Program-made: the position numbers and the translations under genes
The notes under the pieces: generated by a model
The model's input: the letters and a program-made list of their open reading frames with translations, nothing else
The model's database searches: none
What the model was told of the DNA's origin: nothing
From: Buttiauxella noackiae ATCC 51607
GTDB lineage: Bacteria; Pseudomonadota; Gammaproteobacteria; Enterobacterales; Enterobacteriaceae
Direction of reading: 5' to 3'
DNA length: 45,306 nt
Assembly: GCF_001654865.1 (NCBI RefSeq)
Contig: NZ_LXEO01000044.1
Span: 1-45,306 of the forward strand
In this document: in pieces, positions 17,175-34,739 of the stretch
Layout: each line of letters starts with the position of its first letter
Position numbering within the stretch: position 1 is the stretch's first letter

Positions 17175-17180
17175 CAATCA

Positions 17181-17212
17181 CAAGCCCCTCTCCTCAACCG
17201 AGAGGGGCTTGC
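17181..17212 (+). terminator. Hairpin after galP
   Basis: An 11-bp perfect stem (17182-17192 with 17200-17210) lies just after galP. It lacks a clear T-run, so it may terminate weakly or protect the 3' end. Confidence 0.6.
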
Positions 17213-17245
17213 ACCCTGTTCCACCTCGCACTATTCTTTGCCGCT

Positions 17246-17761: not shown

Positions 17762-17853
17762 AAATATTATTCATAAAGTTTCCTGATTTACCTTATTGAA
17801 TCCCAATAAAGCTTCAAGTACGGTGCGAGCACGTTTTAAAAAGGATTCTGGAA

Positions 17854-18561
17854 ATGTCTCGCAAAATTTCTTTGGCTGTTGCACTTGTTGCAGCCCTCTG
17901 CTCTTTCTCCACGTTCAGCACCGGTATCAATAATTTCTCTCAGGCTAAAGCGGCTGGTGCAAAAGTGAATGCCGATGCGCCAGGCGACTTCTATTGCGGA
18001 TGTAAAATTAACTGGGAAGGGAAAAAGGGTGTTCCCGATCTAGAGTCATGCGGCTACAAAGTGCGTAAAAATGAAAACCGCGCCTCACGTATCGAATGGG
18101 AACATGTTGTTCCAGCCTGGCAGTTCGGCCACCAGCGCCAGTGTTGGCAAGATGGTGGTCGTAAAAACTGCGCTAAGGACCCGGAATATCGCAAGATGGA
18201 AAGCGATATGCATAATCTGCAACCGGCTGTAGGTGAAGTAAATGCTGACCGTAACAACTTTATGTATAGCCAGTGGAATGGTGGTGAAGGCCAGTACGGG
18301 CAATGCGCAATGAAAGTGGACTTCAAAGAAAAGATTGCCGAGCCACCAGCGCGTGCCCGGGGTGCTATCGCCCGCACTTACTTCTATATGCGTGACCAAT
18401 ATCAGCTCAACCTTTCTCGCCAGCAAACACAACTGTTTGAGGCGTGGAATAAGCAATATCCCGTCACCACCTGGGAGTGCGAACGCGACGAACGAATCGC
18501 TAAAGTTCAGGGCAATCATAACCCTTATGTGCTGCGGGCTTGCCAGGCACAAAACAGCTAA
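17854..18561 (+). CDS. endA: Periplasmic DNA-specific endonuclease I
   Basis: Secreted nuclease that cuts double-stranded DNA; 235 residues as in E. coli. The signal peptide is about residues 1-22 (hydrophobic [17 protein letters not shown]). The catalytic beta-beta-alpha metal motif is in [12 protein letters not shown] (H84), and [17 protein letters not shown] carries the conserved Asn and Asp residues. Several cysteines fit periplasmic disulfides. AAAAAGGA lies upstream of the ATG. Confidence 0.96.
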
Positions 18562-18587
18562 CCTACACTAGCGGGAATTGTTTCTGT

Positions 18588-18609
18588 CCCCTCTCTCTGC
18601 AGGAGAGGG
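18588..18609 (+). terminator. Possible endA terminator hairpin
   Basis: A 7-bp stem (ccctctc / gagaggg) with a 7-base loop between endA and rsmE. No T-run, so termination is uncertain. Confidence 0.35.
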
Positions 18610-18645
18610 AGAATATATACATCTGATTTTGGATCATAAAAAACC

Positions 18646-19377
18646 ATGCGCATACCCCGCATTCATCACCCTGAACTCCTTTGTGTCGGCCAGGACATTG
18701 CACTTTGTGAAGACGCAGCAAATCATGTTGGCCGCGTACTACGCATGAGTGCAGGCCATGCGCTGCAATTGTTTGACGGCAGCAATCAGGTTTTTGAGGC
18801 TGAAATTGTTCAGGCCGATAAAAAAAGCGTGCGGGTAAAAGTCCTCAGCGCGAGCGTTGATGACCGTGAGTCCCCACTTCATCTACATCTCGGCCAGGTG
18901 ATGTCGCGCGGTGAAAAGATGGAATTCACGATTCAGAAAGCAGTCGAGCTGGGTGTGAATGTGATTACGCCTTTGTTTTCCGAGCGCTGTGGCGTAAAAC
19001 TGGATGCCGAACGCCTGAATAAGAAGCTTGGGCAATGGCAGAAAATTGCTATTGCAGCCTGCGAGCAATGCGGCCGGAATATCGTGCCGGAAGTTCGCCC
19101 AGCGATGGATTTGGAAGCGTGGTGTGCGGAACAAGATGACAGCCTGAAACTGAATCTGCATCCTCGTGCCAGCGCCAGTATTAATACATTGCCGCAACCT
19201 GTTGAACGTGTGCGCTTACTTATCGGCCCGGAAGGCGGTTTAACGGCTGATGAAATTGCCATGACCGCACGTCATCAGTTTACTGATATTCTGTTGGGAC
19301 CTCGCGTTCTGCGTACTGAGACTACCGCGCTCACCGCCATTACCGCGCTGCAAGTGCGCTTTGGCGATCTGGGCTAA
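18646..19377 (+). CDS. rsmE: 16S rRNA m3U1498 methyltransferase
   Basis: SPOUT-class methyltransferase that uses S-adenosylmethionine to methylate N3 of U1498 in 16S rRNA. The 243 residues match the family. The trefoil-knot motifs [14 protein letters not shown] and [16 protein letters not shown] are at the C-terminus, and a PUA-like domain is expected at the N-terminus. It is 14 bp before gshB, so the two are likely co-transcribed. Confidence 0.96.
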
Positions 19378-19391
19378 AACGGAGAAAAACA

Positions 19392-20339
19392 ATGATCAAG
19401 CTCGGCATCGTGATGGATCCCATCGCAAACATTAACATTAAGAAAGACTCAAGCTTTGCCATGCTGCTGGAAGCCCAGCGCCGTGGTTATGAACTGCATT
19501 ACATGGAAATGGCCGATCTGTATTTGATCAACGGCGAAGCACACGCACGCACTCGCCTGGTCACTGTCGAGCAGAATTACGATAAATGGTACGAATTTGG
19601 TAGTGAGCAAGACATCCAGCTTGCCGATCTCGACGTTGTATTGATGCGTAAAGACCCGCCGTTTGATACCGAATTTATCTACGCAACTTACATTCTTGAG
19701 CGCGCCGAAGAACAAGGCACATTGATCGTTAACAAACCGCAAAGCCTGCGCGATTGTAACGAAAAGCTGTTCACCGCCTGGTTTGCAGATTTAACTCCAG
19801 AAACGCTGGTGACGCGCAACAAAGCGCAGCTTAAAGCATTCTGGCAAAAACATGGCGACATCATCCTCAAGCCGTTAGATGGCATGGGTGGTGCTTCAAT
19901 TTTCCGTGTTAAAGAAGGCGACCCTAACATTGGTGTTATCGCTGAAACACTGACTGAACTCGGCAACCGTTACTGCATGGCGCAAAATTACCTGCCTGCG
20001 ATTGTTGACGGTGACAAACGTGTTCTGGTGGTGGATGGTGAACCTGTTCCATATTGCCTGGCGCGTATTCCACAAGGCGGCGAAACTCGTGGCAACCTGG
20101 CAGCGGGTGGCCGTGGCGAACCGCGTCCTTTGACAGAAAGCGACTGGGAAATTGCCCGTCGTGTTGGCCCTACTCTTAAAGCGAAAGGGCTGATTTTTGT
20201 TGGCCTGGATATCATTGGCGATCGCCTGACTGAGATTAACGTCACCAGCCCAACATGCATTCGCGAAATCGAAGCCGAATTCCCGGTTTCTATTACCGGC
20301 ATGTTGTTTGACGCAATCGAAAAACGCCTGGCTAAATAG
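19392..20339 (+). CDS. gshB: Glutathione synthetase
   Basis: ATP-grasp ligase joining gamma-glutamylcysteine and glycine to make glutathione in the cytoplasm. Length 315 (E. coli about 316). The ATP-grasp motif [13 protein letters not shown], the glycine-rich loop near [16 protein letters not shown] and the C-terminal [13 protein letters not shown] are visible. GGAG lies eight bases upstream of the ATG. Confidence 0.97.
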
Positions 20340-20346
20340 TCCGGCG

Positions 20347-20382
20347 CACCTCTTTTAAAGAGGTACGGCCCAAGGATGGGCC
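20347..20382 (+). other. Two short hairpins after gshB
   Basis: acctctt/aagaggt (20347-20363) and ggccca/tgggcc (20367-20382) lie in tandem between gshB and yqgE. Neither has a T-run. They may affect read-through into yqgE. Confidence 0.35.
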
Positions 20383-20470
20383 AAGTGTCCAGAGCAGTTC
20401 AACAGTGATAAACTGGCTATTGTCTGCGCATCAAATGTCGCTTTTTCAACCGGAACCAGAACCTCTGACA

Positions 20471-21034
20471 ATGAATTTACAGCATCACTTTCTAATTGCC
20501 ATGCCGGCGCTCCAGGATCCTCTGTTTAAGCGAGCAGTCGTTTATGTTTGTGAATACAACGATGAAGGCGCTATGGGGATAATCATTAACAAGCCCCTCG
20601 AAAACCTCCAGGTTGACGGTGTTCTGCAAAAACTCAAGATCGAACCAGAACCACGTGACCCAGCTATTCGCCTTGATAAACCTGTTTTTATTGGCGGCCC
20701 GCTGGCGGAAGACCGTGGTTTTATTTTGCACACCCCACCAGATTGTTTCGCCTCCAGCATCCGTATTTCGGATGACACTGTGATCACCACATCTCGTGAT
20801 GTCCTGGAAACTATCGGCACATCAAAACAACCTGCAGATGTGATTGTTGCACTCGGTTACTCATCGTGGGAAAAGGGGCAACTGGAACAAGAGATTCTGG
20901 ACAATGCGTGGCTAACCGCTCCGGCAGATGCCTCTATTCTGTTCCACACCCCGATTTCTGAACGCTGGCGTGAAGCCGCAAAATTAATCGGCATTGATAT
21001 CCATAATATGCCAAGTGAAGCGGGACACGCCTGA
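20471..21034 (+). CDS. yqgE: YqgE/AlgH family protein
   Basis: A 187-residue DUF179 protein of unknown biochemical role. I chose the ATG at 20471 because the product then begins [12 protein letters not shown] like E. coli YqgE and has the same length. An upstream ATG at 20405 would add 22 unlike residues. Conserved blocks include [25 protein letters not shown] and [12 protein letters not shown]. Its stop overlaps the ruvX start by one base (TGATG), indicating translational coupling. Confidence 0.93.
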
Positions 21035-21453
21035 TGAGCAGTGGAACTTTATTAGCCTTTGATTTCGGTACCAAAAGTATTGGTGTCGCCATCGGCCAAC
21101 GCATTACCAGAACGGCACGCCCCTTAACTGCACTGAAAGCACAAGACGGCACCCCCGACTGGAACGTTATCGAGAAAATCCTCAAAGAGTGGCAACCTGA
21201 TGAAGTTGTCGTGGGTTTACCACTGAATATGGATGGCACCGAGCAACCACTCACCGCCCGTGCGCGTAAATTTGCTAATCGCCTGCATGGCCGGTTTGGC
21301 GTAAAAGTCTCTTTGCAGGATGAACGCCTGAGTACCGTTGAAGCACGCGCAGGGTTATTCGAGCACGGTGGTTTCCGCGCGCTCAATAAAGGCAGCATTG
21401 ACTCTGCATCGGCGGTTATCATTCTTGAAAGCTGGTTTGACTATAACCCTTAA
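21034..21453 (+). CDS. ruvX: Holliday junction resolvase-like / pre-16S rRNA nuclease YqgF
   Basis: RNase H-fold protein of 139 residues (E. coli 138), implicated in 16S rRNA 5'-end maturation. The first acidic residue is D10 in [31 protein letters not shown] is the usual phosphate-binding region, and [12 protein letters not shown] near the end carries the last acidic site. It is coupled to yqgE by a one-base overlap and faces yggR, 13 bp away, tail to tail. Confidence 0.95.
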
Positions 21454-21466
21454 GCCCTGCCTCTGA

Positions 21467-22492
21467 TTAGCTCCATCCCTCTTCATTCGGAGAGGGTGAA
21501 AGCACTTCATTCGCAAGCTCTCCTTGTGCATGTAACAAAGCTTCGCACTGCGCAAAACTCTGCATACCGTATTGCTGCCCGGTTTGAATCAGCCCTGGTA
21601 ACTGATGCGTCTTGCCTTCGCGGATAAGGCTTGCCACGGCGGGTGTATTAACCAGTAATTCGAATGCAGCCACCCTTCCCCCGCAGCTATCAGGCAATAA
21701 TTTCTGCGCCAGCACTGCTTTTAAACTGCCCGCAAGCTGGCTACGCACCATGTTTTTTTCTTCTGCAGGAAAGACATCTACCAACCGTTCCACGGCTTGT
21801 GCCGCCCCGCGAGTGTGGAGGGTTGCCAGTACCAGATGCCCAGTTTCTGCGGCGGTAAGTGCAAGGCGGATAGTTTCACTGTCACGTAATTCCCCGAGCA
21901 AAATAACGTCGGGATCTTCACGAAGTGCCGCGCGTAAACCGGCAGAAAATGAACGGCAATGCTGGCCTGGCTCTCGCTGTTGAATCAAACAACGCTTCGA
22001 GTGGTGTACAAATTCAATCGGGTCTTCCAGTGTGAGAATGTGCCCGTCGAGCTGATGATTCAGGTTGTCTACCATCGCGGCGAGCGTGGTGGATTTCCCA
22101 CTGCCTGTGGCCCCCGTCACCAGAATCAATCCATCAGCAGATTTCAGTAATTCCGGGATGATGGCAGGAACGTTTAACGACTCAAGTTTTGGACTGTGGG
22201 AAGCAAGTATCCGTAATACTAGTGAGACACCCTGCATCTGGCGAAAGGCGTTGGCACGCAGCCGCGTACCGCTGACGAGGGTCACAGCAAAATCCAATTG
22301 TCCGTGCTCTTCCAGCTCTTCTCTTTGCCCGTTTGTCAGCCAGGTGTCCAGCAACGTTGCGGGTAATGGAACGTTTTCGGGTAAAGGTTCAAGTCGCCCT
22401 CGTCTACGCCAGCGAGCAGGAAGCTGTGCACACAGGTGTAGATCAGAGACGTTATGCTTTACACTAAGGGCCACAATTTCTTCGATATCCAT
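21467..22492 (-). CDS. yggR: PilT-like ATPase YggR
   Basis: Secretion-type ATPase of the PilT/GspE superfamily, 341 residues (E. coli YggR 326). I chose the start at 22492 because the product then begins MDIEEIVALSVKHNVSDLHL, matching the family. The open frame runs 85 codons further up but only through the antisense of yggS. Walker A GATGSGKST is at 127-135, and the Asp box LGELRDSETI and His box ATLHTRGAAQ follow. No pilin genes are near, so a twitching role is unproven. The C-terminus is longer than in E. coli. Confidence 0.9.
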   Translation of the reverse strand: MDIEEIVALSVKHNVSDLHLCAQLPARWRRRGRLEPLPENVPLPATLLDTWLTNGQREELEEHGQLDFAVTLVSGTRLRANAFRQMQGVSLVLRILASHSPKLESLNVPAIIPELLKSADGLILVTGATGSGKSTTLAAMVDNLNHQLDGHILTLEDPIEFVHHSKRCLIQQREPGQHCRSFSAGLRAALREDPDVILLGELRDSETIRLALTAAETGHLVLATLHTRGAAQAVERLVDVFPAEEKNMVRSQLAGSLKAVLAQKLLPDSCGGRVAAFELLVNTPAVASLIREGKTHQLPGLIQTGQQYGMQSFAQCEALLHAQGELANEVLSPSPNEEGWS

Positions 22493-22507
22493 ATCACTTT
22501 TCAATCT

Positions 22508-23212
22508 ATGAACGAGATAGCGCACAATCTGGCACAGGTTCAGAACAAAATCCTGGTGGCAACTGAACGCTGCGGCCGTGCTCCAGAAGAAGTTACTCTG
22601 CTTGCAGTCAGTAAAACTAAGCCTGCGAGTGCCATCGCAGAAGCTATTGCTGCCGGCCAACGAGTCTTTGGTGAAAACTACGTTCAAGAAGGCGTGGACA
22701 AAATTCGTTACTTTGCCGAAAACGGTGAGACCCCACTGGAATGGCACTTTATCGGCCCATTACAGTCGAACAAAAGCCGTCTGGTTGCTGAACATTTTGA
22801 CTGGTGCCATACCGTCGATCGTTTGCGAATTGCAACGCGGCTGAACGAGCAGCGTCCAACTGAGCTGCCGCCGCTTAACGTACTGATTCAAATTAATATT
22901 AGTGATGAGCAAAGCAAATCCGGCATTGCGCTCAATGAGCTTGATGCACTGGCAGCTGATGTCGCTGCTCTGCCGGGTTTGGTGTTACGAGGTTTGATGG
23001 CAATTCCTGCCCCTGAACCTGATTACGAGCATCAGTTAGCGGTTTGCCAGAAAATGGCAGACGCTTTCACATCGCTCAAAAACCGTTATCCAACGGTTGA
23101 TACGTTGTCCCTGGGCATGACCGATGACATGGACGCCGCGATTGCTGCAGGCAGCACCATGGTGCGCATTGGAACCGCTATTTTCGGCGCGCGGGATTAC
23201 CCTGCTCGCTAA
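22508..23212 (+). CDS. yggS: PLP homeostasis protein YggS (PLPBP family)
   Basis: Cytoplasmic pyridoxal phosphate-binding protein of the alanine-racemase N-terminal fold. It has no known catalysis and is required for normal vitamin B6 and amino acid balance. Start 22508 gives 234 residues as in E. coli; K36 in LAVSKTKPA is the PLP lysine. GENYVQEG, HFIGPLQSNKSR and LSLGMTDDM are conserved. It is divergent from yggR with only 15 bp between start codons, so each promoter must lie inside the other gene. Confidence 0.95.
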   Translation: MNEIAHNLAQVQNKILVATERCGRAPEEVTLLAVSKTKPASAIAEAIAAGQRVFGENYVQEGVDKIRYFAENGETPLEWHFIGPLQSNKSRLVAEHFDWCHTVDRLRIATRLNEQRPTELPPLNVLIQINISDEQSKSGIALNELDALAADVAALPGLVLRGLMAIPAPEPDYEHQLAVCQKMADAFTSLKNRYPTVDTLSLGMTDDMDAAIAAGSTMVRIGTAIFGARDYPAR

Positions 23213-23237
23213 TTCATTATAATTATTGAGGAACGCC

Positions 23238-23792
23238 ATGCTGACGTTGACTTTCCTGGTCAAAACGCTGATTGAACTGTATGTAATGGTGCTGCTGATT
23301 CGCATCTGGATGCAGTGGTCACGTTGTGATTTTTATAATCCTTTTGCACAGTTTATCGTCAAGATTACTCAACCGATTGTCGGGCCACTGCGCCGGGTAA
23401 TTCCATCGATTGGCCCGATTGATACATCTTCATTGTTGCTGGCGTTTATTCTCACCACGATGAAGTATCCAATTTTGCTACTTATTCAAGTGGGCGCATT
23501 GTCACTTGACCCGATGAACTTACTGGTTGGCCTGTTATCACTGCTGAAATCCGCCGGTACGCTGGTGTTCTGGGTGATTATAATTCGCTCACTGATGAGT
23601 TGGATTAGCCAGGGCCGCAGCCCAGTTGAATACGTACTGATGCAACTGACTGAACCGATGATGGCACCGATTCGCCGTGTGATTCCGGCGATGGGCGGAA
23701 TTGATTTCTCCGCGATGGTCGTCATTTTGATTCTCTACGCACTGAACTACCTCGGCATGGACTTGTTCCCGGGGCTTTGGTATTTGCTGTGA
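23238..23792 (+). CDS. yggT: YggT family inner-membrane protein
   Basis: A hydrophobic 184-residue protein (E. coli 188) with a duplicated YggT domain; each half has the motif [11 protein letters not shown] or [11 protein letters not shown] after a membrane segment. About four membrane helices are predicted. TGAGG lies eight bases before the chosen ATG at 23238; a TTG 12 bases upstream is less likely. The family is linked to osmotic stress and potassium uptake in other reports. It is coupled to yggU. Confidence 0.92.
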
Positions 23793-24079
23793 GTGCAGTG
23801 AGTCAAACCGAGGATGGGCTGGTTTTACGGCTATATATTCAGCCTAAAGCCAGCCGCGATAGCATTGTTGGATTGCATGGCGACGAGTTAAAAGTCGCCA
23901 TCACCGCCCCACCGATAGACGGCAAAGCCAACGCCCATCTGGTAAAGTATTTGGCTAAGTTGTTCCGCGTTGCCAAAAGCCAGGTTCTGGTTGAGAAAGG
24001 TGAGTTGGGCCGCCACAAGCAAATTAAGATTATCAACCCGCAACAAATCCCGACGGAAGTCGCGGCATTGCTCGATTAA
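23789..24079 (+). CDS. yggU: DUF167 family protein YggU
   Basis: A small protein of 96 residues, equal to E. coli YggU when read from the GTG at 23789. That GTG overlaps the yggT stop (GTGA), a classic coupling arrangement. Conserved parts are [21 protein letters not shown] and [11 protein letters not shown]. No function is established. Confidence 0.92.
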
Positions 24080-24107
24080 TCATCTAATTTCACAGGATTT
24101 TCTCACT

Positions 24108-24701
24108 ATGCAAAAAGTTGTCCTCGCGACCGGCAATGCCGGAAAAGTGCGTGAACTCGCTGATTTACTGGCCGATTTTGGTCTGGATGTTGTGGCACAA
24201 ACTGAACTGGGTGTTGAGTCTGCTGAAGAAACTGGCCTGACATTTATCGAGAATGCCATTCTGAAAGCACGCCATGCATCACAAGTTACTGGCCTGCCTG
24301 CAATTGCCGATGACTCTGGTCTGGCTGTTGATGTACTCGGCGGCGCGCCGGGGATTTACTCCGCACGCTATGCCGGAGTTGATGCTTCAGATCAACAGAA
24401 CCTGGAAAAGTTACTCGCTACACTGAAAGATGTGCCGGACGAGCAACGCAAAGCACGTTTCCACTGCGTGCTGGTGTATATGCGCCATGCAGAAGATCCC
24501 ACGCCACTCGTGTGTCACGGTAGCTGGGAAGGTCAAATTACCCGCGAAGCCGCAGGCCAGGGTGGCTTTGGCTACGACCCCATTTTCTTTGTCCCGAGTG
24601 AAGGCAAAACTGCCGCTGAACTGACTCGCGATGAAAAACGTGCGATTTCCCACCGTGGGCAAGCGCTAAAACTGTTACTGGAAGCAATGAAAAATGGCTA
24701 A
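24108..24701 (+). CDS. rdgB: dITP/XTP pyrophosphatase
   Basis: House-cleaning enzyme that hydrolyses dITP, ITP and XTP to monophosphates, keeping deaminated purines out of DNA. Start 24108 gives 197 residues as in E. coli, beginning [17 protein letters not shown]. The catalytic Asp is in [10 protein letters not shown] (D68/D69), and the C-terminal GYDPIFFVP and SHRGQAL are family motifs. It overlaps hemW by eight bases. Confidence 0.96.
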
Positions 24702-25830
24702 TTTGCCACCTCTGAGTCTCTATATTCACATCCCGTGGTGCGTACAGAAGTGCCCCTACTGTGACTTCAACTCTCATGCACTCAAAGGCGACGTACCGCA
24801 CGACGAGTATGTCGCCCATCTGTTGCGCGATCTGGATAACGACGCGCCAATGGCACAAGGACGTGAAATAAAGACCATCTTTATTGGTGGCGGTACGCCG
24901 AGCCTGCTTTCAGGTGAGGCGATGCAAAATCTGCTCGACGGTGTGCGTGCTCGCCTGCCGTTGGCAGCTGATGCGGAAATCACAATGGAAGCCAACCCCG
25001 GAACGGTGGAAGCAGACCGCTTCGTGAGCTATCAACGTGCGGGAGTGAACCGAATTTCTATCGGCGTGCAGAGTTTTAGCGAACCAAAATTGAAGCGTCT
25101 GGGGCGTATCCACGATTCAGGTGAAGCGAAACGTGCAGCACACCTCGCGAGCGGGCTTGGCTTGCGCAGCTTTAACCTGGATTTGATGCACGGCCTGCCG
25201 GATCAAACTTTGGAAGAAGCGCTCGACGATTTGCGCCAGGCTATTGAGCTCAGCCCTCCGCATCTTTCCTGGTATCAGCTGACGATTGAGCCAAACACGC
25301 TGTTTAGCTCACGCCCGCCAAAATTGCCGGATGACGACGCGTTGTGGGATATTTTCGAGCAAGGCGACAAGCTGCTGACCGCTGCGGGTTACCAGCAATA
25401 TGAAACCTCTGCCTATGCAAAACCGGGTTACCAGTGCCAGCACAACCTGAACTACTGGCGCTTTGGTGATTACCTGGGGATTGGCTGCGGCGCGCACGGC
25501 AAAGTGACATTCCCAGATGGCCGTATTTTGCGTACCGCTAAAACCCGCCATCCGCGTGGTTATATGGAAGGTAAATACCTCGACAAGCAGCACGATGTGG
25601 AGCAAGGCGACAAACCGTTCGAGTTCTTTATGAACCGTTTCCGTCTGCTGGAAGCCGCGCCGCGTAAAGAATTTAGCCTGTATACCGGGCTTGATGAGTC
25701 GGTGATTCGTGCGCAGTTAGACGAGGCAATTGCTAAAGATTATTTGGTTGAAACAGAGGATTATTGGCAGATTACCGAGCATGGGAAGCTGTTTTTGAAT
25801 TCGCTGTTGGAACTGTTTTTAGCTGAATAA
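24694..25830 (+). CDS. hemW: Heme chaperone HemW (radical SAM family)
   Basis: Radical SAM-fold protein of 378 residues as in E. coli. The cluster-binding cysteines are C16, C20 and C23 in [34 protein letters not shown] and GVQSFS follow. HemW proteins bind heme and are proposed to deliver it to respiratory enzymes; they were long confused with coproporphyrinogen dehydrogenase HemN. It overlaps rdgB by eight bases. It is the last gene of the segment matching E. coli 66-67 min; the next gene is setA instead of the E. coli neighbours yggM and ansB. Confidence 0.95.
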
Positions 25831-25843
25831 TCAGGAATTATTT

Positions 25844-25915
25844 GGCGGATGACGCTACGCTTATCCGCCCTACTAAGTGCAGTTGTAGGTTGGATAAGCG
25901 TAGCGTCATCCGACA
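25844..25915 (+). repeat. REP pair (BIME) at the hemW-setA junction
   Basis: Two inverted REP units share a perfect 20-bp inverted repeat (25847-25866 and 25892-25911) with a 25-base spacer that can itself pair (ctac...gtag). The first unit also forms ggcggat...atccgcc. The element fills most of the 95 bp between the convergent stops of hemW and setA. It probably stabilises or ends both messages and marks the synteny breakpoint. Confidence 0.85.
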
Positions 25916-25925
25916 TAATTTCGGC

Positions 25926-27104
25926 TTAAATATTCTTCACCCGGCTCGTCAAAATCAACGCCAGTACCGACAGCCCGGCAATCAGCCAGTACACCGAATG
26001 GTGCCCAAAACTCTCCGCCAACGCTCCCTGTAAAACCCCTGCCAGAATCACACCCGTCGAGATACTATTGGTGAATAATGTGGTTGCAGACCCCGGCCTA
26101 CCCGGCATTAAATCCTGGAACCACAACATTCCAATACCGGCGACAATACCAATAAACACCGCGTTAAAGAGCTGGAGCAATAGCAACGCCGTGCGGCTAT
26201 GGAATAGAATTAAGCCGACGTAGAACAACACGCCAGCCGCCACAGCAATCACCATCATGCGCCGCTTGCCAAAACGCTTCACGTAATAGCCCGCAAGAAT
26301 CATTGCCGGGATCTCAAGACCCGCAGCCGTTCCCATCAGAAGCCCCGCCAACGATTCGGGCAGCCCTAAATCACTGCTGACCCACAACGGCATGTCGATG
26401 ATATACATGGTGTTGCAGGTCCACATCAGCATCGAGGCGATAAACAGCATACGGACGTTTTTGTCTTTCCAGCCGCTGACCTGGGTAAGCGCCACATCAG
26501 CGGGCTGTTCAATTCTTGCGACTGAAGGAAGTGCGAAGAAAATTAGCGCAAGCGAGATAACGAAAATCCCGGCCGCGATAAGAAACATGGTGGTAAAGCC
26601 GTAATTTAACGCGAGCATAAACGACAATGGCGGGCCAATAACCCAGGCAAGCGAGAGCTGCGCACGCATGATCGAGCTGAACATCACCACTTCACGCGCA
26701 GAGTTATCGGCATACTCACGGGCAAGGGCGAAAATTTGCGGCATGGCGGTATTAGCAATAGACGCGAACATGACGCCAACGGTGATTAACGTCAGGTAAT
26801 GACGGTTAAAAGCAAAAAGCACACAGTTTGCTACTGCCATCATGCAACAAACCATAATCAGTTTGCGGCGATCGCCCTGATTATCTGAACGCTTCGCCAG
26901 TGCCAGGCTGACGAGAATCCCGGCTATCGCATTGACGGTATAAAACAGACCGACCCAGAATGGGCGCACCTCTACTTCGCGACTTAAAAACAGGCTAAGA
27001 GTGGGCGCCTGGAGTGCCCCCGCAATCCCCATCATGAAAGCCACAATCATAAATGCGGCATATACCGGATTGAGGCGGCGTCCTTTGGTCAGAAACCAAA
27101 TCAT
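25926..27104 (-). CDS. setA: Sugar efflux transporter SetA
   Basis: Major facilitator superfamily exporter of glucosides and lactose, 392 residues as in E. coli, with 12 predicted helices. YAAFMIVAFMMGIAGALQAPTLSLFLSREV at the start, AKRSDNQGDRRK after helix 2 and GMLWFQDLMPGR are conserved in Set proteins. AGGAA precedes the ATG. It lies downstream of sgrS on the same strand; in E. coli the two can be co-transcribed and both relieve glucose-phosphate stress. SetA over SetB is supported by the sgrS/sgrR context. Confidence 0.93.
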   Translation of the reverse strand: MIWFLTKGRRLNPVYAAFMIVAFMMGIAGALQAPTLSLFLSREVEVRPFWVGLFYTVNAIAGILVSLALAKRSDNQGDRRKLIMVCCMMAVANCVLFAFNRHYLTLITVGVMFASIANTAMPQIFALAREYADNSAREVVMFSSIMRAQLSLAWVIGPPLSFMLALNYGFTTMFLIAAGIFVISLALIFFALPSVARIEQPADVALTQVSGWKDKNVRMLFIASMLMWTCNTMYIIDMPLWVSSDLGLPESLAGLLMGTAAGLEIPAMILAGYYVKRFGKRRMMVIAVAAGVLFYVGLILFHSRTALLLLQLFNAVFIGIVAGIGMLWFQDLMPGRPGSATTLFTNSISTGVILAGVLQGALAESFGHHSVYWLIAGLSVLALILTSRVKNI

Positions 27105-27173
27105 GCAGAAATTCCTTTTGTTCGAGCGCTCACTGGGTGTGCAAAACGTAAACTATACCTTAATGACGGGCAT

Positions 27174-27432
27174 AAAAAAGCCAGCAGGAACAATCTGCTG
27201 GCCAGGTGAAATTCACCAATTCTCAGTCACACATGTATCAACGAGTCAGTGCTTCACGGTCACGGAAGTTGTCACCTCCCACTGCATTAAGTCCTCAAGC
27301 ATCCTTAGACGTTGCGATGCTGTCAGGCGAGCCAGCCATCCAGCGGAAACACTTTGGGTTGCGGTAAAATACTGTTGATAGAACTTAATAACTGGCGACC
27401 GTTTCATATACATCTCCACTTCCTCGTTTCAA
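27174..27432 (-). ncRNA. sgrS: Small RNA SgrS
   Basis: Hfq-dependent RNA made during glucose-phosphate stress that pairs with ptsG mRNA. On the minus strand the pairing region gtgtgactgagaattggtg (27214-27232) is nearly identical to that of E. coli. It is followed by a GGTG/CACC hairpin and a terminator: stem ccagcag/ctgctgg (27181-27201), then a run of six T broken from the stem by one C. The 5' end is estimated, about 25 bases before sgrT, by analogy with E. coli. It is divergent from sgrR and upstream of setA. Confidence 0.9.
27246..27407 (-). CDS. sgrT: Small protein SgrT, inside SgrS
   Basis: A 53-residue frame within SgrS containing KFYQQYFTAT, LTASQRLRMLEDLMQW, clearly SgrT-like (E. 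coli 43 residues). GGAG lies six bases before the chosen ATG at 27407; an in-frame ATG at 27413 is too close to it. SgrT inhibits the glucose transporter PtsG directly. This copy has extra residues at both ends and a divergent middle. It ends 13 bases before the RNA pairing region, as dual-function SgrS requires. Confidence 0.88.
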   Translation of the reverse strand: MKRSPVIKFYQQYFTATQSVSAGWLARLTASQRLRMLEDLMQWEVTTSVTVKH

Positions 27433-27500
27433 CGTTGTTAATTATTGGCGTAATATGAGGAGAGTTAAATTGATGAGTTTCTGACGGGAGTTCCTCTTTT

Positions 27501-29189
27501 ATGTCCAGCGGTCGTCTACAACAACAGTTCATACGTTTATGGCAATACTTTGAAGGTAAGCCGCAGGAAACCACGCTTAATGAGCTGGCAGATCTGCTGA
27601 ATTGCTCCCGTCGCCATATGCGTACGCTACTGAGTGCAATGCAGGAAAAAGGCTGGCTCAGTTGGAAAGCAGAGGTCGGGCGCGGCAAGCGTTCACAGCT
27701 GGAATTCCTGTATACCGGCCTTGCACTGCAACAACAGCGGGCTGAAGATCTTCTTGAGCAAGACAGAATTGATCAATTGGTGCAGATCGTTGGTGATAAA
27801 GCCGCTGTACGCCAAATGTTGATTTCGCATCTTGGCCGTAGCTTCCGTCAGGGGCGGCATATCCTGCGCGTTCTCTATTACCGCCCGCTGTTAAATCTAT
27901 TACCAGGCTCGGCTTTACGTCGTTCAGAAACCCATATTGCCCGGCAAATTTTCAGCGGATTAATCCGTATAAATGAGGAAAATGGGGAACTGGAAGCAGA
28001 TATTGCCCATCACTGGCAGCAAATTTCCCCATTACATTGGCGTTTTTATCTGCGCCCCGGCGTTCATTTCCACCATGGACGTGAGCTGGATATGCTGGAT
28101 GTAATGACGTCCCTGCAACGCATTAATAGCTTGCCGCTGTATTCACACATCACGCAAATTACCTCTCCAACTGCATGGACGCTGGATATTATGCTTTCGC
28201 AACCGGACAACTGGTTGCCGTGGCTGCTGGGTAGCGTCAATGCCATGATTCTGCCGCGTGAATGGCAAACCCTGAGCAATTTTTCCCGCCAGCCAGTCGG
28301 TACTGGGCCGTACTCTGTCGTACGCAATAATACTAACCAACTGAAGATTCAGGCTTACGATGATTACTTTGGCTATCGCGCACTCATTGACGAGGTAAAT
28401 TTCTGGGTATTGCCGGAGATCGGTGAAGATGTCAGTTGCGCAGTGCAACTGTCGGGCATGCCTGACAGTGAAAAAGCCGTAGAAAGCCGCCTGGAAGAAG
28501 GCTGCTATTACATTTTGTTTGATAGACGATCCGAATCTGGCAGTAATGATGAAGTTCGCCGCTGGCTAAGCCATGTATTGGCCCCCATCCATCTGCTTTA
28601 TAGCGCAGGAGCTCAAAACCAACAGTACTGGTTCCCGGCGTATGGGTTATTGCCGCGCTGGCACCACGCACGTCCACAACCGGTGCTTGAAAAACCTGCT
28701 GGTCTGGAATCTGTAACGCTGACGTTTTATCGCGATCACGTCGAACACAGAGTTATCAGTAAAGTCATGGAGGAATTGCTGGCTCGCGTAGGGGTTAAGC
28801 TTGTGGTGCAGGAGGTTAGCTATGAGGAGTGGCACCAGGGCAATGCTGAAAGCGATATCTGGCTTAACAGCGCGAACTTCACCCTACCGCTGGAGTTTTC
28901 CCTCTATTCTCATCTTTATGAAGTGCCGTTGATTCAAAAATGCATCGCAAATGACTGGGAAACCGATACCCGCAAATGGCATAACGGCGAACTTTCGCTA
29001 CCTGAATGGTGCCAAAAACGAGTTGAAAACAATGATATTTTGCCGTTAATCCACCACTGGCTGCGTATTGAAGGGCAGCGCAGTATGCGTGGTGTACGCA
29101 TGAACACACTGGGCTGGTTTGACTTTAAATCGGCATGGTTTGCGCCGCCGGAACCACAATCCGTGAATACGGGTAAAGAGCTTTCGTAA
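27501..29189 (+). CDS. sgrR: Transcriptional activator SgrR
   Basis: Activator of sgrS under glucose-phosphate stress. Of 562 residues (E. coli 551), the first ~110 form a winged-helix DNA-binding domain with [22 protein letters not shown]. Residues from about 160 on resemble periplasmic oligopeptide-binding proteins, with no signal peptide, so it is a cytoplasmic sensor. GGGAG lies about nine bases before the ATG. It is divergent from sgrS, as in E. coli, and upstream of thiB. A few insertions near residues 315-345 account for the extra length. Confidence 0.95.
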
Positions 29190-29218
29190 GATTCACAAAA
29201 TCATTACAATGCACGCGT

Positions 29219-29303
29219 TCTCAACGGGGTGCTAAGACGAAAGTCTGGCTGAGATAATACCCGTCGAACCTGATCCGGATAACGCCGGCGAAGGGATTTG
29301 AGG
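29219..29303 (+). promoter_or_regulatory. TPP riboswitch (THI box) upstream of thiB
   Basis: The conserved aptamer elements are present in order: acggggtgct, the ggctgagataatacccg block, gaacctgatccgg and aacgccggcgaaggga. A downstream stem (aagggatttgag with ctcaaagtcctt, about 29291-29322, imperfect) could be the expression platform ahead of the thiB ribosome binding site. The E. coli counterpart is sroA. Confidence 0.95.
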
Positions 29304-29350
29304 CTCAATTCTCAAAGTCCTTTGCCACCCCTAATTCCAAGAGGTGCAAA

Positions 29351-30334
29351 GTGTTCAAAAAATTCCTGCCGTTACTGGCACTCATCGCAGCCCCTGTTTT
29401 TGCAAAACCCCTGCTGACTGTTTACACCTACGACTCTTTTGCTGCCGATTGGGGTCCTGGCCCTGCGGTGAAAAAGGCCTTTGAAGCTGACTGCAATTGC
29501 GAGCTGAAATTTGTTGCCCTCGAAGATGGCGTTTCACTACTTAACCGTCTGCGCATGGAAGGTAAAAACAGCAAAGCCGACGTAGTTCTGGGGCTTGATA
29601 ACAACCTGCTGGAAGCGGCTGCACAAACTAAACTGTTCGCCCCGAGCAACGTCGACACCGGTTCACTAAAAATCCCAGGCGGCTGGAATAACAGTACGTT
29701 CGTGCCGTTCGACTACGGTTATTTCGCCTTTGTGTATGACAAAAACAAACTCAAAAATCCGCCAAAAAGCCTGAAAGAATTAGTCGAAAGCGACCAAAAA
29801 TGGAAGGTAATTTACCAGGATCCACGCACCAGCACGCCGGGTTTAGGTCTGCTGTTATGGATGCAGAAAGTTTACGGCGACAAAACGCCTGAAGCCTGGG
29901 CGAAACTGGCGAAGAAAACCGTCACCGTCACTAAAGGCTGGTCTGAGGCCTACGGCCTGTTCCTGAAAGGCGAAGGCGACCTGGTGATGAGCTACACCAC
30001 ATCTCCGGCGTATCACATCATTGAAGAGAAAAAAGATTACTACGCGGCAGCCAATTTCAGCGAAGGGCACTATTTGCAGGTGGAAGTGGCGGGTCGCCTG
30101 GCTTCAAGCAAGCAGCCAGAGCTGGCAGCGAAATTCATGAAATTCATCACCACGCCTGAGTTCCAGAACACGATCCCAACCGGCAACTGGATGTACCCGG
30201 TCACAGACGTGAAATTACCAGAAGGCTTTAATAGCCTGGTCAAACCGCAGACTACGCTGGAATTTAGCCCGCAAGACGTCTCTTCCCATCGCGCCAGCTG
30301 GATTAGTGAATGGCAACGCTCCGTCAGCCGCTGA
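29351..30334 (+). CDS. thiB: Thiamine ABC transporter, periplasmic binding protein
   Basis: Periplasmic protein binding thiamine and its phosphates for ThiPQ; 327 residues as in E. coli (also TbpA). A GTG start is preceded by AGAGGTG. The signal peptide is residues 1-18 (cleavage PVFA/KP). TVYTYDSFAADWGPGP, VVLGLDNNLL, FVPFDYGYFAFVYD and GNWMYPV are conserved. Its 3' end overlaps thiP by 25 bases. Regulated by the TPP riboswitch. Confidence 0.97.
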   Translation: MFKKFLPLLALIAAPVFAKPLLTVYTYDSFAADWGPGPAVKKAFEADCNCELKFVALEDGVSLLNRLRMEGKNSKADVVLGLDNNLLEAAAQTKLFAPSNVDTGSLKIPGGWNNSTFVPFDYGYFAFVYDKNKLKNPPKSLKELVESDQKWKVIYQDPRTSTPGLGLLLWMQKVYGDKTPEAWAKLAKKTVTVTKGWSEAYGLFLKGEGDLVMSYTTSPAYHIIEEKKDYYAAANFSEGHYLQVEVAGRLASSKQPELAAKFMKFITTPEFQNTIPTGNWMYPVTDVKLPEGFNSLVKPQTTLEFSPQDVSSHRASWISEWQRSVSR

Positions 30335-31947
30335 TCCCAGGCTGGCTGATTCCAGGGCTATGCGCCGCCACTCTCGTGGTCACCGTAGCCCTGGCTGCTT
30401 TTCTGGCATTGTGGTTGAACGCGCCGCAAACCGATATCCGCGCTTTGGTGCAGGATAGTTATTTGTGGCACGTACTGCGCTTTTCCTTCTGGCAAGCGTT
30501 TCTCTCAGCCGCCCTTTCCGTGTTACCAGCCATTTTTCTTGCCCGGGCACTTTATCGACGCCATTTCCCAGGGCGGCTCGCGCTGTTGCGTTTGTGCGCC
30601 ATGACGCTGGTTTTGCCAGTGTTGGTGGCAGTGTTCGGGATTCTGACGGTGTATGGTCGCGAAGGCTGGCTGGCCTCATTTTGCGCCTGGCTGGGAATTG
30701 AGTGGGCATTTTCACCCTACGGCCTGAAAGGCATTTTGCTGGCCCACGTTTTTTTCAATATGCCGATGGCGACACGCCTGCTTCTTCAGGCACTGGAAAA
30801 TATCCCCAGCGAACAACGACAGGTCGCCGCGCAGTTGGGAATGCAGGGTTGGAACTTCTTCCGCTTTGTAGAGTGGCCGTGGTTACGCCGCCAGATCCTT
30901 CCTGCCGCCGCACTGATTTTCATGCTCTGCTTCGCAAGTTTTGCCACGGTGCTTTCACTGGGCGGTGGGCCCCAGGCAACCACCATTGAACTGGCCATTT
31001 TCCAGGCGCTCAGTTATGACTACGATCCCGCTCGTGCGGCATTGCTCGCATTAGTGCAAATGGTTTGCTGTTTAGGCCTGGTGCTAATGAGCCAACGGCT
31101 GAGCAAAGCGATTCCCGTTGGTATCAGCCAGATGGAGGGCTGGCGCGATCCGCAAGATAACCTGCGCCGCAAACTGTGCGACGGGCTGTTAATTTCACTC
31201 GCATTGCTGCTGTTATTGCCGCCACTTTTGGCGGTAATCATTGATGGCATTAATAGTGGTTTTAACACGGTATTGTCGCAGCCGATTCTCTGGCAGGCAC
31301 TGTTCACCTCATTAAGAATTGCTGTTGGCGCGGGATTGATAAGTGTAGTCATCACGGTAATGCTGCTGTGGAGTTCGCGGGAATTGCGCCTGCGCAATCG
31401 TGCATTCGCAGGACAGGCGCTGGAACTCAGCGGCATGCTAATCCTCGCAATGCCGGGCATAGTGCTGGCGACCGGCTTTTTCCTGCTGCTCAATAACAGC
31501 GTGGGTTTGCCACAATCAGCCGATGGCATTGTGATTTTCACCAATGCGCTGATGGCGATCCCTTACGCGCTAAAAGTGCTGGAAAACCCGATGCTGGACG
31601 TCGCGGAACGCTACAACAAACTGTGCCAGTCGCTGAATATCAACGGCTTAAACCGCCTGCGTTATATCGAGTTGCGCGCCCTGAAACGCCCACTGGCGCA
31701 AGCCCTGGCATTTGCCTGCGTGCTGTCGATTGGTGATTTTGGCGTAGTGGCGCTGTTTGGTAATGAAGATTTCCGTACGCTGCCGTTCTATCTCTATCAA
31801 CAAATTGGTTCATATCGCAGCCAGGATGGTGCCGTTACCGCGCTTATCCTGCTGATATTGTGCTTTGCTTTATTCACATTGATTGAAAAACTTCCGGGGC
31901 GCTCTTCCCAAAATCATTCGAGTTGCAGGAAGGCGGTAATTGAATGA
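30310..31947 (+). CDS. thiP: Thiamine ABC transporter, permease
   Basis: Inner-membrane permease made of two fused halves, each with an EAA-type loop: EQRQVAAQLGMQGWNFFRF in the first and NKLCQSLNINGLNRLRYIE in the second. These contact the ATPase ThiQ. Length 545 (E. coli 536). Homology holds up to EKLPGR; the final residues SSQNHSSCRKAVIE are read from an ERIC element inserted at the 3' end, which also supplies the TGA stop. In E. coli thiP and thiQ overlap; here they are 78 bases apart. The change is at the extreme cytoplasmic tail, so transport is probably kept. Confidence 0.93.
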   Translation: MATLRQPLIPGWLIPGLCAATLVVTVALAAFLALWLNAPQTDIRALVQDSYLWHVLRFSFWQAFLSAALSVLPAIFLARALYRRHFPGRLALLRLCAMTLVLPVLVAVFGILTVYGREGWLASFCAWLGIEWAFSPYGLKGILLAHVFFNMPMATRLLLQALENIPSEQRQVAAQLGMQGWNFFRFVEWPWLRRQILPAAALIFMLCFASFATVLSLGGGPQATTIELAIFQALSYDYDPARAALLALVQMVCCLGLVLMSQRLSKAIPVGISQMEGWRDPQDNLRRKLCDGLLISLALLLLLPPLLAVIIDGINSGFNTVLSQPILWQALFTSLRIAVGAGLISVVITVMLLWSSRELRLRNRAFAGQALELSGMLILAMPGIVLATGFFLLLNNSVGLPQSADGIVIFTNALMAIPYALKVLENPMLDVAERYNKLCQSLNINGLNRLRYIELRALKRPLAQALAFACVLSIGDFGVVALFGNEDFRTLPFYLYQQIGSYRSQDGAVTALILLILCFALFTLIEKLPGRSSQNHSSCRKAVIE

Positions 31948-32025
31948 AGCCAGGGAGCATAGAAAACTATGTGACCAGGATGAAAGAAGGCAGCCAACGC
32001 ACCTGTAACTTGAAGGATGAAGGGA
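31903..32025 (+). repeat. ERIC element inside the thi operon
   Basis: An ERIC-like repeat with termini ttcgagttgcagg and cctgtaacttgaa (13-base inverted ends with two mismatches) and the internal blocks aaggcggtaa and cagccaacgc. Its centre is divergent from consensus. It runs from the last codons of thiP to the thiQ start codon. It carries the thiP stop and the GAAGG/AAGGG bases in front of thiQ. Confidence 0.8.
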
Positions 32026-32730
32026 ATGCTAACGCTGACTGATGTAACCTGGCTCTATCACCATTTACCGATGCGTTTTTCGATGCAGATCAACGCCGGA
32101 GAACGCGTTGCGGTGTTGGGACCTAGCGGAGCGGGGAAAAGTACGCTGCTCAGTTTGATTGCCGGTTTTCTGACGCCTGCCAGCGGGCAAATCATGCTAA
32201 ATGGCAATGACCACACGGCGACTGCGCCAGCACAGCGCCCGGTGTCGATGCTGTTCCAGGAGAATAATCTATTCAACCACCTGACTGTGCGTCAGAACAT
32301 TGGCCTCGGGTTAAATCCTGGCCTGAAGCTTAATGCCGCACAGCTCGAACGCCTGGCCACGATTGCCAACCAAATGGCGATAAGCGATTTACTCGACAGG
32401 CTGCCATCACAGCTTTCCGGTGGCCAGCGCCAGCGTGTCGCCCTTGCCCGCTGCCTGGTGCGCGAACAACCGATTTTGCTGCTCGATGAGCCATTTTCAG
32501 CACTCGACCCGGCACTGCGCCAGGAGATGCTGCAACTGCTTGATAATTTATGTCGCCAACAACAGCTGACGCTATTGATGGTGTCACACAGTATTGAAGA
32601 TGCAGCGCGAATCGCTGAAAGAAGTCTTGTGGTGGTCGATGGCCGTATCGCCTGGGATGGCGACACGGCAACCTTATTGAGCGGAGAAGTTAGCGCATCA
32701 GCGTTGTTAGGTATTAGTGGTGCCCAGTGA
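32026..32730 (+). CDS. thiQ: Thiamine ABC transporter, ATPase
   Basis: ABC ATPase of 234 residues (E. coli 232). Walker [10 protein letters not shown] at 32-40, Q-loop FQENN, signature [14 protein letters not shown] from 130 and Walker B ILLLDEP ending at 156 are intact. I chose ATG 32026, which aligns with the E. coli start and has GAAGG at seven bases; an ATG at 32017 adds three residues. The leader is ERIC-derived. The 3' end overlaps the convergent yabI by 17 bases. Confidence 0.95.
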
Positions 32731-33487
32731 GCACTTTCCAAAGAATACTGCGGTAAATCGGCATCATCGGGTGCATCTGAATGGCAACAAAGCTCCCCAC
32801 CGCCAGCACGGCTATTGTTGGGGCTAACCAATGCAAACGAGATCGTGGCAGGTACTGAGTTAAACGATCGGTACTTGCTTTACCGCTGCGCCACCAGCGC
32901 CAACACAACCAGCCCGCCAGCCACAGCCCCAGAGCCACCAGTAGCAAGAGCCATTTAAAGCTGCTGCTTTGCATATCCGCAGGAATATCAATCGCGGCAC
33001 CCGCCAGAATCCCCGGTAAAAAATAGATTGGTGGCCAGAAAATACAGCCAATAATGTTCGGGACGATAAATTTAGAAACCGGGAGATCAAGCATGCCTGC
33101 AACCATCGGCACCAGCGGTCGTGTCGGGCCAACAAAACGGCCAACCAGGATGGTAAACATGCTGTGCTGATGCAGCGCATGCTCGGTTTTATCCAGCAGC
33201 GCTTTGTTCTTTTTCATAAACGACCAGCGATGCAGCGGCCCTTTAAAGCGGCCTCCTAGCCAGAACGAAATCCAGTCGCCCAGCAGACAACCGATAATCC
33301 CCGCAGCCCAGGCATGATAGAACCCAACCTGACCGCCACCAATCAGCGCACCAAGCCCCGCCATCATTACTGTGCCAGGCAGGATAAGCCCCACCAGCGC
33401 CAGAGATTCCAGAAAAGCCACCAGCATCACTGCAAAAAGCGAGTACGCCACTGACTGAGTAATAAAGTGTTCCAGCAAAGCTTCCAT
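32714..33487 (-). CDS. yabI: DedA family inner-membrane protein YabI
   Basis: Membrane protein of 257 residues (E. coli 254) of the DedA/SNARE-associated family, thought to move lipids or support proton-dependent envelope functions. [26 protein letters not shown] and [19 protein letters not shown] are the family blocks. Start 33487 gives [12 protein letters not shown] like E. coli; the frame continues 33 codons upstream without similarity. The ribosome binding site is weak. Convergent with thiQ, overlapping it by 17 bases. Confidence 0.92.
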
Positions 33488-33593
33488 AAAGCGTCCGTCG
33501 AGAAACGAGTGGGCGATTCTCCAGAGTGTGGATTCAAGCGTCAAGCCATGATTTGTATGATTATGTAGGCTAACTACAAAACCCATTCAGCCG

Positions 33594-33625
33594 TATGTCG
33601 GATAAGCGCAGCGTCCTCCGACATA
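33594..33625 (-). repeat. REP palindrome between araC and yabI
   Basis: A 9-bp stem (33594-33602 with 33617-33625) of the gtcggat...tccgac family with an internal agcgcagcg. It sits 27 bp after the araC stop on the minus strand and probably protects or ends the araC message. Confidence 0.7.
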
Positions 33626-33652
33626 CATAAGGGCATCCAGTAAGGATAGCGG

Positions 33653-34498: not shown

Positions 34499-34686
34499 CT
34501 ACAAGCTCGCAATTCAAGAAGGGTGTAGAAACAATTTGTCCATATCCGTGCTATTCCTTGCCAGGGCAACACTATCTGAACCGTAAACCGTCCGATTCTC
34601 ATCATAAAGCCGCAATTTACCTGCACCTATGCTTTTTACCTGACAATTATGGGGTTTTAAGAAGATAACCAAACTGTTTATAAAAG

Positions 34687-34703
34687 TAGCAGAAATATCC
34701 ACA
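34687..34703 (+). promoter_or_regulatory. AraC half-site, araO1-like
   Basis: tagcagaaatatccaca matches the AraC half-site pattern TAGC-N7-TCCA closely. It lies 53 bp upstream of I1, the region of O1 in E. coli, and could mediate araC autoregulation. Confidence 0.65.
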
Positions 34704-34710
34704 TCGATTA

Positions 34711-34726: not shown

Positions 34727-34739
34727 CTTCTCAAAGGCA

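What the first reader, a model, noticed from the sequence alone, without database searches (positions are those of the whole stretch)
25831..25925. Origin-spanning inversion junction between hemW and setA
In E. coli K-12 hemW (about 3.10 Mb) is followed by yggM-ansB, and setA (about 0.08 Mb) by leuD. Here they face each other 95 bp apart. Order and orientation on both sides (fbaA to hemW running toward oriC; setA to rluA also running toward oriC) are what one inversion spanning oriC would give. From recalled map positions the endpoints are about 0.83 and 0.79 Mb from oriC, so nearly symmetric, like the X-shaped inversions seen between related bacteria. The reciprocal junction should join the yggM/ansB side to the leuD side.
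Basis: partly seen in the sequence, partly recalled or inferred. Interest (0 to 1): 0.75.

Follow-up and report, generated by a model that had tools for sequence, protein, structure and literature searches.

The report
Genus-wide double flip around replication origin
Two genes that lie far apart in relatives of this bacterium sit side by side here because a huge piece of chromosome around the replication origin was flipped, a fixed and ordinary kind of change that marks the genus Buttiauxella and turns out to be the second of two nested flips.

Summary
hemW and setA face each other across 95 bp, and this is not an assembly join: all 11 other genomes of the genus searched, three of them near-complete, have the same junction. 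Named matches place the window in Buttiauxella. The predicted reciprocal junction exists: yggN faces leuD in the same draft genome and in all 11 others. yggM and ansB are missing there. In three near-complete Buttiauxella chromosomes the two junctions lie 779/788, 729/760 and 777/798 kb from the origin, so the inversion is nearly symmetric.

One inversion is not the whole story. Marker maps show that the origin core is not inverted relative to E. coli. A second, nested origin-spanning inversion (dolP/yraQ x cybC/nrdG) is also present. It is shared with Cedecea and Dryocola, whereas hemW|setA is a single gain on the Buttiauxella branch. So the nested inversion came first and the Buttiauxella inversion second, putting the origin back in its old orientation and exchanging two blocks between replichores. 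REP or ERIC repeats fill most junction gaps but not all. Known kind, new instance.

The parts
52..25830 (.). Block ancestrally on the left replichore (fbaA-pgk-epd ... rdgB-hemW), outside the inverted segment
   Evidence: tblastn with E. coli K-12 proteins, same order apart from two genes between epd and tktA
24694..25830 (+). hemW, last gene before the outer-inversion breakpoint, pointing toward oriC
   Evidence: 88% identity to E. coli HemW; Radical_SAM + HemN_C
25831..25925 (.). Breakpoint gap hemW|setA, a tail-to-tail intergenic region
   Evidence: same adjacency in 11 of 11 other same-genus genomes
25844..25869 (+). REP-like palindrome, first arm of a BIME-like inverted pair
   Evidence: pattern scan; the gap folds at -55.2 kcal/mol, z = -9.5; dispersed family: 65 of the 67 matches fall on the gap (both strands of palindromic sites counted, self included; 40 of 114 candidates scored)
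25889..25914 (-). REP-like palindrome, second arm of the inverted pair
25926..27104 (-). setA, first gene of the block brought over from the other replichore
   Evidence: 80% identity to E. coli SetA; MFS_1
25926..45262 (.). Block ancestrally on the right replichore (setA-sgrR-thiBPQ-yabI-araCBAD-polB-rapA-rluA), inside the inverted segment
   Evidence: tblastn with E. coli K-12 proteins
27173..27433 (-). SgrS small RNA gene upstream of setA, carried with the block
   Evidence: Rfam RF00534, 91.2 bits

Best explanation
The hemW|setA junction is one end of a chromosomal inversion spanning oriC, about 1.5-1.6 Mb long and nearly symmetric, fixed in the common ancestor of the sampled Buttiauxella. 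Its other end is yggN|leuD. It was the second of two nested origin-spanning inversions. An older one, with breakpoints dolP|yraQ and cybC|nrdG, is shared with Cedecea and Dryocola. Together they leave the origin core (yraQ-fusA-oriC-groL-tldE) in its E. coli-like orientation and exchange two blocks between replichores, each inverted relative to its new neighbours. Shown: both reciprocal junction pairs, their distribution, the marker order and the symmetry. Inferred: that breakage happened in tail-to-tail intergenic gaps because breaks there damage no gene or operon, and that near-symmetry arose because breaks occur where the paired replication forks are at the same time and/or because selection keeps replichores balanced. 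Recombination between REP copies is possible but not shown.
For: Reciprocal junction yggN|leuD in the window's own genome and in 12 of 12 Buttiauxella genomes counting it. hemW|setA in the same 12 of 12. Eighteen markers in 6 genomes plus 8 finer markers in 6 genomes give the same ori-half order in G008, G009 and G011, and E. coli-like order in G012 and G033, and in G020 (18 markers only) apart from a flipped mnmG. Inner junctions: nrdG|yraQ (25 bp) and tldE-cybC..dolP in G009, nrdG|yraR and tldE..dolP in G008 and in Cedecea davisae, tldE..dolP in G011. In the marker search tldE..dolP lie 10-27 kb apart in opposite orientation in 8 of 9 Buttiauxella/Cedecea/Dryocola-group genomes; the ninth, G065, gave no dolP hit but shows nrdG beside yraQ. 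hemW stays beside ansB or yggN in the four Cedecea/Dryocola-group genomes read, and setA stays near leuC or leuD in that group. In the tree the 9 hemW-setA rows form one fully supported clade with one change. Origin distances 779/788, 729/760 and 777/798 kb. The 4 breakpoints are tail-to-tail in E. coli, against 6 of 46 and 4 of 40 neighbouring pairs in two E. coli stretches, which include two of the four.
Against: The window's genome is a 104-contig draft, so its own origin distances are taken from relatives. The inner inversion is less symmetric: 629 versus 534 kb on the E. coli map. Dryocola, C. colo and the MAG L052 have nrdG beyond the dolP block on the same contig and gave no yraQ hit, so they need a further event. 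The hemW|yggN gap is not untouched elsewhere: in G068 and G069 hemW and trmB are about 94-96 kb apart on one contig, and in G070 on different contigs, so that site has been broken or filled more than once. No repeat is constant at the breakpoints: G001 and G005 have neither REP nor ERIC in either gap, so a repeat-mediated mechanism is not demonstrated.
Confidence: 0.93

Rival explanations
1. A single origin-spanning inversion from an E. coli-like order, with nothing else in the origin half.
For: Both reciprocal junctions of one inversion exist and are nearly symmetric.
Against: fusA, glyQ, mnmG, rpoB and groL keep the E. coli orientation relative to metK-eno-guaB and leuC-dnaE-clpX, and the inner junctions exist.
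Confidence: 0.02
2. Reciprocal transposition of two blocks (setA..nrdG and yggN..dolP) between the replichores, without whole-origin inversions.
For: The net result relative to E. coli is exactly a block exchange.
Against: It needs two long inverted transpositions that share ends exactly. Relatives hold the inner junctions without the outer ones, as stepwise inversions predict. No relative with the core still flipped was seen, so the intermediate itself is inferred.
Confidence: 0.04
3. Assembly join at a repeated REP element.
For: The gap is a REP pair of a dispersed family and the window's genome is a draft.
Against: Same junction in 11 of 11 other same-genus genomes, with different gap contents (REP, ERIC or a bare hairpin), and in 3 near-complete assemblies.
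Confidence: 0.005
4. The inversion was caused by homologous recombination between REP/BIME copies in inverted orientation at the two ancestral gaps.
For: REP units lie at hemW|yggN in Dryocola, and the E. coli hemW|yggM gap reads as REP units by eye. In Buttiauxella 10 of 12 hemW|setA gaps and 10 of 12 yggN|leuD gaps hold REP or ERIC.
Against: setA|leuD gaps lack them in Dryocola and, by reading, in C. davisae and others. hemW gaps of C. davisae, C. neteri and RIT693 show no such REP by reading. Two Buttiauxella have neither element in either gap. The scan did not score the E. coli gap. Elements turn over between species, so presence today says little.
Confidence: 0.2

Closest known systems
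Symmetric (X-shaped) inversions about the replication origin (Eisen et al. 2000, seen only as a reference entry in PMC12863080; Darling et al. 2008, PMC2483231, passages read)
   Same: Inter-replichore inversion with endpoints about equally far from oriC, conserved gene-versus-fork orientation, and a reciprocal junction.
   Different: Fixed at genus level, with one specified breakpoint pair and a resolved order relative to an older nested inversion shared with sister genera.
Repeated inter-replichore inversions and breakpoint reuse in Yersinia (Darling et al. 2008, PMC2483231, passages read)
   Same: Several overlapping origin-spanning inversions, and reuse of breakpoints (here the cybC|nrdG gap is used again in the separate lineage G028).
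   Different: Here the events are few, old and fixed. The ori/dif relative orientation is not conserved: G009 is E. coli-like, G008 and G011 are flipped.

Membership tests
Origin-spanning symmetric inversion | Two reciprocal novel junctions with consistent orientation | tested here: met
   hemW|setA and yggN|leuD, both tail-to-tail, in 12 of 12 Buttiauxella genomes
Origin-spanning symmetric inversion | oriC lies inside the inverted segment | tested here: met
   mnmG, taken as the oriC marker, lies between the two junctions in G008, G009 and G011
Origin-spanning symmetric inversion | Endpoints about equally far from oriC | tested here: met
   779/788, 729/760 and 777/798 kb; E. coli ancestral sites 827/795 kb
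Origin-spanning symmetric inversion | A single inversion accounts for the order relative to E. coli | tested here: not met
   A nested second inversion is required
Repeat-mediated (REP/ERIC/IS/rrn) inversion | The same repeat, in inverted orientation, at both ancestral breakpoints | tested here: inconclusive
   REP or ERIC in most present gaps, none in G001 and G005. No tRNA in the window; in the other stretches scanned, tRNAs only near nusA and a tRNA-Phe about 9 kb from the yggN|leuD gap. Rfam on the window gave only SgrS and a TPP riboswitch; rRNA operons were not sought outside the window

The most novel reading that the evidence does not exclude
Three lineages (Buttiauxella, Cedecea davisae and the unnamed genus of G028) each appear to carry a nested pair of origin-spanning inversions that leaves the origin core in its old orientation relative to the adjoining arms. 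G028 reached this by a separate first inversion that reused the cybC|nrdG gap with a different partner (yhbW|mtr). This may reflect a general pattern in which an origin-flipping inversion is unstable in evolution and is followed by a larger compensating one, with breaks confined to tail-to-tail gaps.
Probability: 0.2. Interest if true: 0.55.

Novelty: new member of a known kind. Interest (0 to 1): 0.35.

Why it matters
It gives clean, alignment-independent characters for enterobacterial phylogeny: a Buttiauxella marker (hemW|setA plus yggN|leuD) and a deeper Buttiauxella+Cedecea+Dryocola marker (cybC..dolP, with nrdG|yraQ in part of the group). It also shows, with a resolved order, that successive origin-centred inversions can move whole blocks between replichores while keeping distance from the origin and orientation to the fork. 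That makes it possible to test whether compensating inversions are favoured.

Tried and rejected
Single-inversion-only model: rejected by marker maps. Assembly artefact: rejected by independent assemblies. ansB loss caused by the inversion: rejected as a tie. A match at 80% identity or more is absent from the own genome and from 10 of 11 other Buttiauxella, but also from genomes without the outer inversion (G012, G028, G030, G034, G060, G061, G062, G064, G065: 9 of the 17 non-Buttiauxella in that search), and G005 has a 91% copy elsewhere at C8:5005. REP as a fixed footprint of the break: not supported, because gap contents differ between species; the REP pattern was tuned to the window and missed the E. 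coli units. Kluyvera georgiana (L064) first looked like another breakpoint because no leuD followed setA within the locus; leuC lies 12 kb away, so it is only a longer gap. The MAG labelled 'uncultured Buttiauxella' (L052) has the ancestral setA-leuD order, but the tree puts it with Dryocola, so it is no exception. Is ori/dif relative orientation conserved? No: 1 of 3 Buttiauxella is E. coli-like. G028 as a member of the inner-inversion clade: rejected, because its hemW/rdgB falls outside and its left breakpoint differs. Paper searches with Buttiauxella as a term listed 12 and 3 papers, none on this by title or abstract start; wider searches listed 0, 18, 12 of 48 and 1. Only passages of PMC2483231 and PMC12863080 were read.

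Counts not told elsewhere. Of 80 named setA loci, 8 have hemW next to setA (all named Buttiauxella isolates) and 69 of the 72 others have leuD downstream within the locus. L059 and L117 end within about 450 bases of setA, and L064 is explained above. Among 10 non-Buttiauxella genomes searched for leuD, setA lies within about 2 kb in 9; G022 gave no setA hit near it in the part that is listed. The match list was cut, so its rows are not complete.

Full report
What was checked. The window is the whole of contig C44 (45,306 bases) of a 4.80-Mb, 104-contig draft genome. SetA matches the 8 named Buttiauxella isolates at 96-99% identity, and a tree of five linked proteins places the window inside Buttiauxella. 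hemW (24694-25830, +) and setA (25926-27104, -) face each other across 95 bp.

The junction is real and genus-wide. A DNA search over 60 relatives found hemW and setA side by side in all 11 other same-genus genomes. In the other genera where both appear in the listed rows they lie on different contigs or far apart (its list was cut). Measured with stop codons, the gaps in the 11 genomes are 45-161 bp (101 for the window) and differ in content. With the window counted, REP-like letters are present in 8 of 12, an ERIC element in 2 (G010, G011), and neither in 2 (G001, G005). In the window the gap is an inverted REP pair, folding at -55.2 kcal/mol against a shuffle mean of -23.3. It belongs to a dispersed family: 65 of the 67 matches fall on the gap, counting both strands of palindromic sites. 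That it is a REP/BIME, and that the other element is ERIC, is recalled from known consensus sequences.

The reciprocal junction exists. In the same draft genome, contig C68 runs speC-nupG-mltC-yggX-mutY-trmB-yggL-yggN then leuD-leuC-leuB-leuA-leuO. yggN|leuD is found in 12 of 12 Buttiauxella genomes, own included; its gap holds ERIC in 8, REP in 2 and neither in 2. yggM and ansB are absent at the site. AnsB (80% identity or more) is absent from 10 of 11 other Buttiauxella but also from 9 of 17 other genomes in that search, so its absence is not tied to the inversion.

Distribution. Of 80 named setA loci, the 8 named Buttiauxella isolates have hemW next to setA, and 69 of the 72 others have leuD. 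Two loci end too early, and one (K. georgiana) has leuC 12 kb away. On an 82-row tree the 9 hemW-setA rows, window included, form one clade with full support and need one change (FastTree, local support only).

The map. Eighteen markers were placed on six genomes and eight finer ones on six. In G008, G009 and G011 (Buttiauxella; chromosomes 5.14, 4.64 and 5.22 Mb) one arm reads oriC, glyQ, fusA, rpoA, mreB, gltB, nusA, then valS, prfC, dnaK in flipped orientation, then setA|hemW, metK, eno, guaB. The other arm reads oriC, rpoB, groL, purA, ppa, then rpoD, mutY in flipped orientation, then leuC, dnaE, clpX. G012 and G033 keep the E. coli order in this half; G020 does too for the markers, except that mnmG itself is flipped. 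One inversion with ends hemW|setA and yggN|leuD cannot give this: a second, inner, origin-spanning inversion is needed.

The inner breakpoints. In G009 nrdG abuts yraQ (25 bp), and tldE is followed by cybC, a malonate decarboxylase cluster and then, 17 kb on, dolP in opposite orientation. G008 has nrdG|yraR and tldE..dolP. Cedecea davisae also has nrdG|yraR (34 bp) and tldE..dolP. In G011 yraR and nrdG are about 2.3 kb apart with an unidentified reading stretch between. The E. coli ancestral pairs are dolP|yraQ and cybC|nrdG. In a 15-genome marker search, tldE..dolP (10-27 kb, opposite orientation) was found in 8 of 9 genomes of the Buttiauxella/Cedecea/Dryocola group; the ninth (RIT693, G065) gave no dolP hit but shows nrdG beside yraQ. 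Of the six others, G012, G067, G068, G069 and G070 keep tldE near nrdG (1.4-13 kb), and G028 is rearranged separately. The outer breakpoints are intact in the group's other genera: hemW is followed by ansB or yggN in C. davisae, Dryocola, RIT693 and C. neteri, and setA by leuD. Hence the inner inversion is older and the outer one is a Buttiauxella novelty that flipped the origin core back. A relative with only the inner inversion and the core still flipped was not seen.

Results that complicate the picture. Dryocola, C. colo and the MAG L052 have nrdG on the far side of the dolP block on one contig; they need a further event, which I did not resolve. From strands, C. davisae also has the core in old orientation with nrdG and dolP blocks on swapped arms, implying a different second inversion; I did not place its oriC or locate those ends. 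G028 lies outside the clade and joins nrdG to mtr, with yhbW..dolP carried intact to the other arm, so its first inversion was independent and reused the cybC|nrdG gap. The hemW|yggN site is also disrupted in G068 (Enterobacter pulveris), G069 (Franconibacter helveticus) and G070 (Entomohabitans): hemW and trmB are about 96 and 94 kb apart on one contig in the first two and on different contigs in the third, with yggN not next to hemW. These keep setA next to leuC, so they are not the Buttiauxella inversion; what lies between was not identified.

Symmetry. Distances from the origin marker to the two outer junctions are 779.1 and 788.1 kb (G011), 729.5 and 759.9 kb (G009), and 777.0 and 797.8 kb (G008). 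The E. coli ancestral sites are at 827.4 and 794.6 kb for the outer inversion and 628.8 and 533.6 kb for the inner. If ends fell independently on arms of about 2.4 Mb, a difference of 33 kb or less would occur about 3% of the time (my estimate), so symmetry is suggestive for a single event. Replichores stay balanced: 2.58/2.64, 2.25/2.39 and 2.53/2.61 Mb. gyrA lies on the other arm in all three Buttiauxella, so more inter-replichore events occurred nearer the terminus.

Mechanism. The 4 ancestral breakpoints are tail-to-tail gaps, while such pairs make up 6 of 46 and 4 of 40 neighbouring pairs in two E. coli stretches, two of the four breakpoints included. A break there harms no gene, operon or promoter, and an inversion between two such gaps makes two new ones. 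REP and ERIC elements favour such gaps (recalled), so their presence at junctions is expected whether or not they caused the break. No repeat is constant across the genus. I judge repeat-mediated recombination possible (about 0.2) and unproven.

Known kind. Symmetric inversions about the origin are well described: Darling et al. 2008, PMC2483231, passages on over-representation, replichore balance, ori/dif orientation and repeated breakpoint use, and PMC12863080, passages. I found no report of this inversion in the searches, which cover only the held open-access library.

Noticed in passing
G028:C1 935355 (L182) and 4291934-4328836 (L202-L204): An unnamed genus outside the clade carries an independent inversion that reuses the cybC|nrdG gap with yhbW|mtr as partner; breakpoint reuse in separate lineages.
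   Followed up: partly
L207-L212 (G069:C23, G068:C4, G070:C3 and C26): In Franconibacter, Enterobacter pulveris and Entomohabitans yggN is no longer next to hemW (about 94-96 kb apart on one contig in the first two), although setA-leuC is intact: the hemW|yggN site was disrupted there separately.
   Followed up: partly
G008, G009, G011 (marker gyrA): gyrA sits on the other replichore, between clpX and rpsA, in all three near-complete Buttiauxella: further inter-replichore inversions nearer the terminus.
   Followed up: no
G008, G011 versus G009: Relative orientation of oriC and dif differs within Buttiauxella (G009 as in E. coli; G008 and G011 flipped).
   Followed up: partly
L175:1951-11992: cybC followed by a malonate decarboxylase gene cluster lies between tldE and dolP in G009; the tldE-nrdG gap is also widened (about 10 kb in G012, 13 kb in G070), so it looks like an insertion-prone site.
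   Followed up: partly
window 3843-7017 (-): TonB-dependent receptor and YncE-like beta-propeller genes sit between epd and tktA, where E. coli K-12 has yggC to cmtB.
   Followed up: partly
G005:C8:5005-6048: One Buttiauxella keeps a 91% identical AnsB (L-asparaginase II) away from the old site; the other 10 searched lack it.
   Followed up: no
L104 (CACSKA010000010.1) and L052 (CAMLJN010000002.1): Record labels look wrong: 'Chryseobacterium sp. 18061' carries an enterobacterial setA locus, and the 'uncultured Buttiauxella' MAG groups with Dryocola.
   Followed up: partly
L043:12881-13128: The yggN|leuD gap holds an ERIC-like element and is about 100 bp longer (248 bp) than the 148-bp gap usual in other Buttiauxella, as if the element had an internal insertion.
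   Followed up: no
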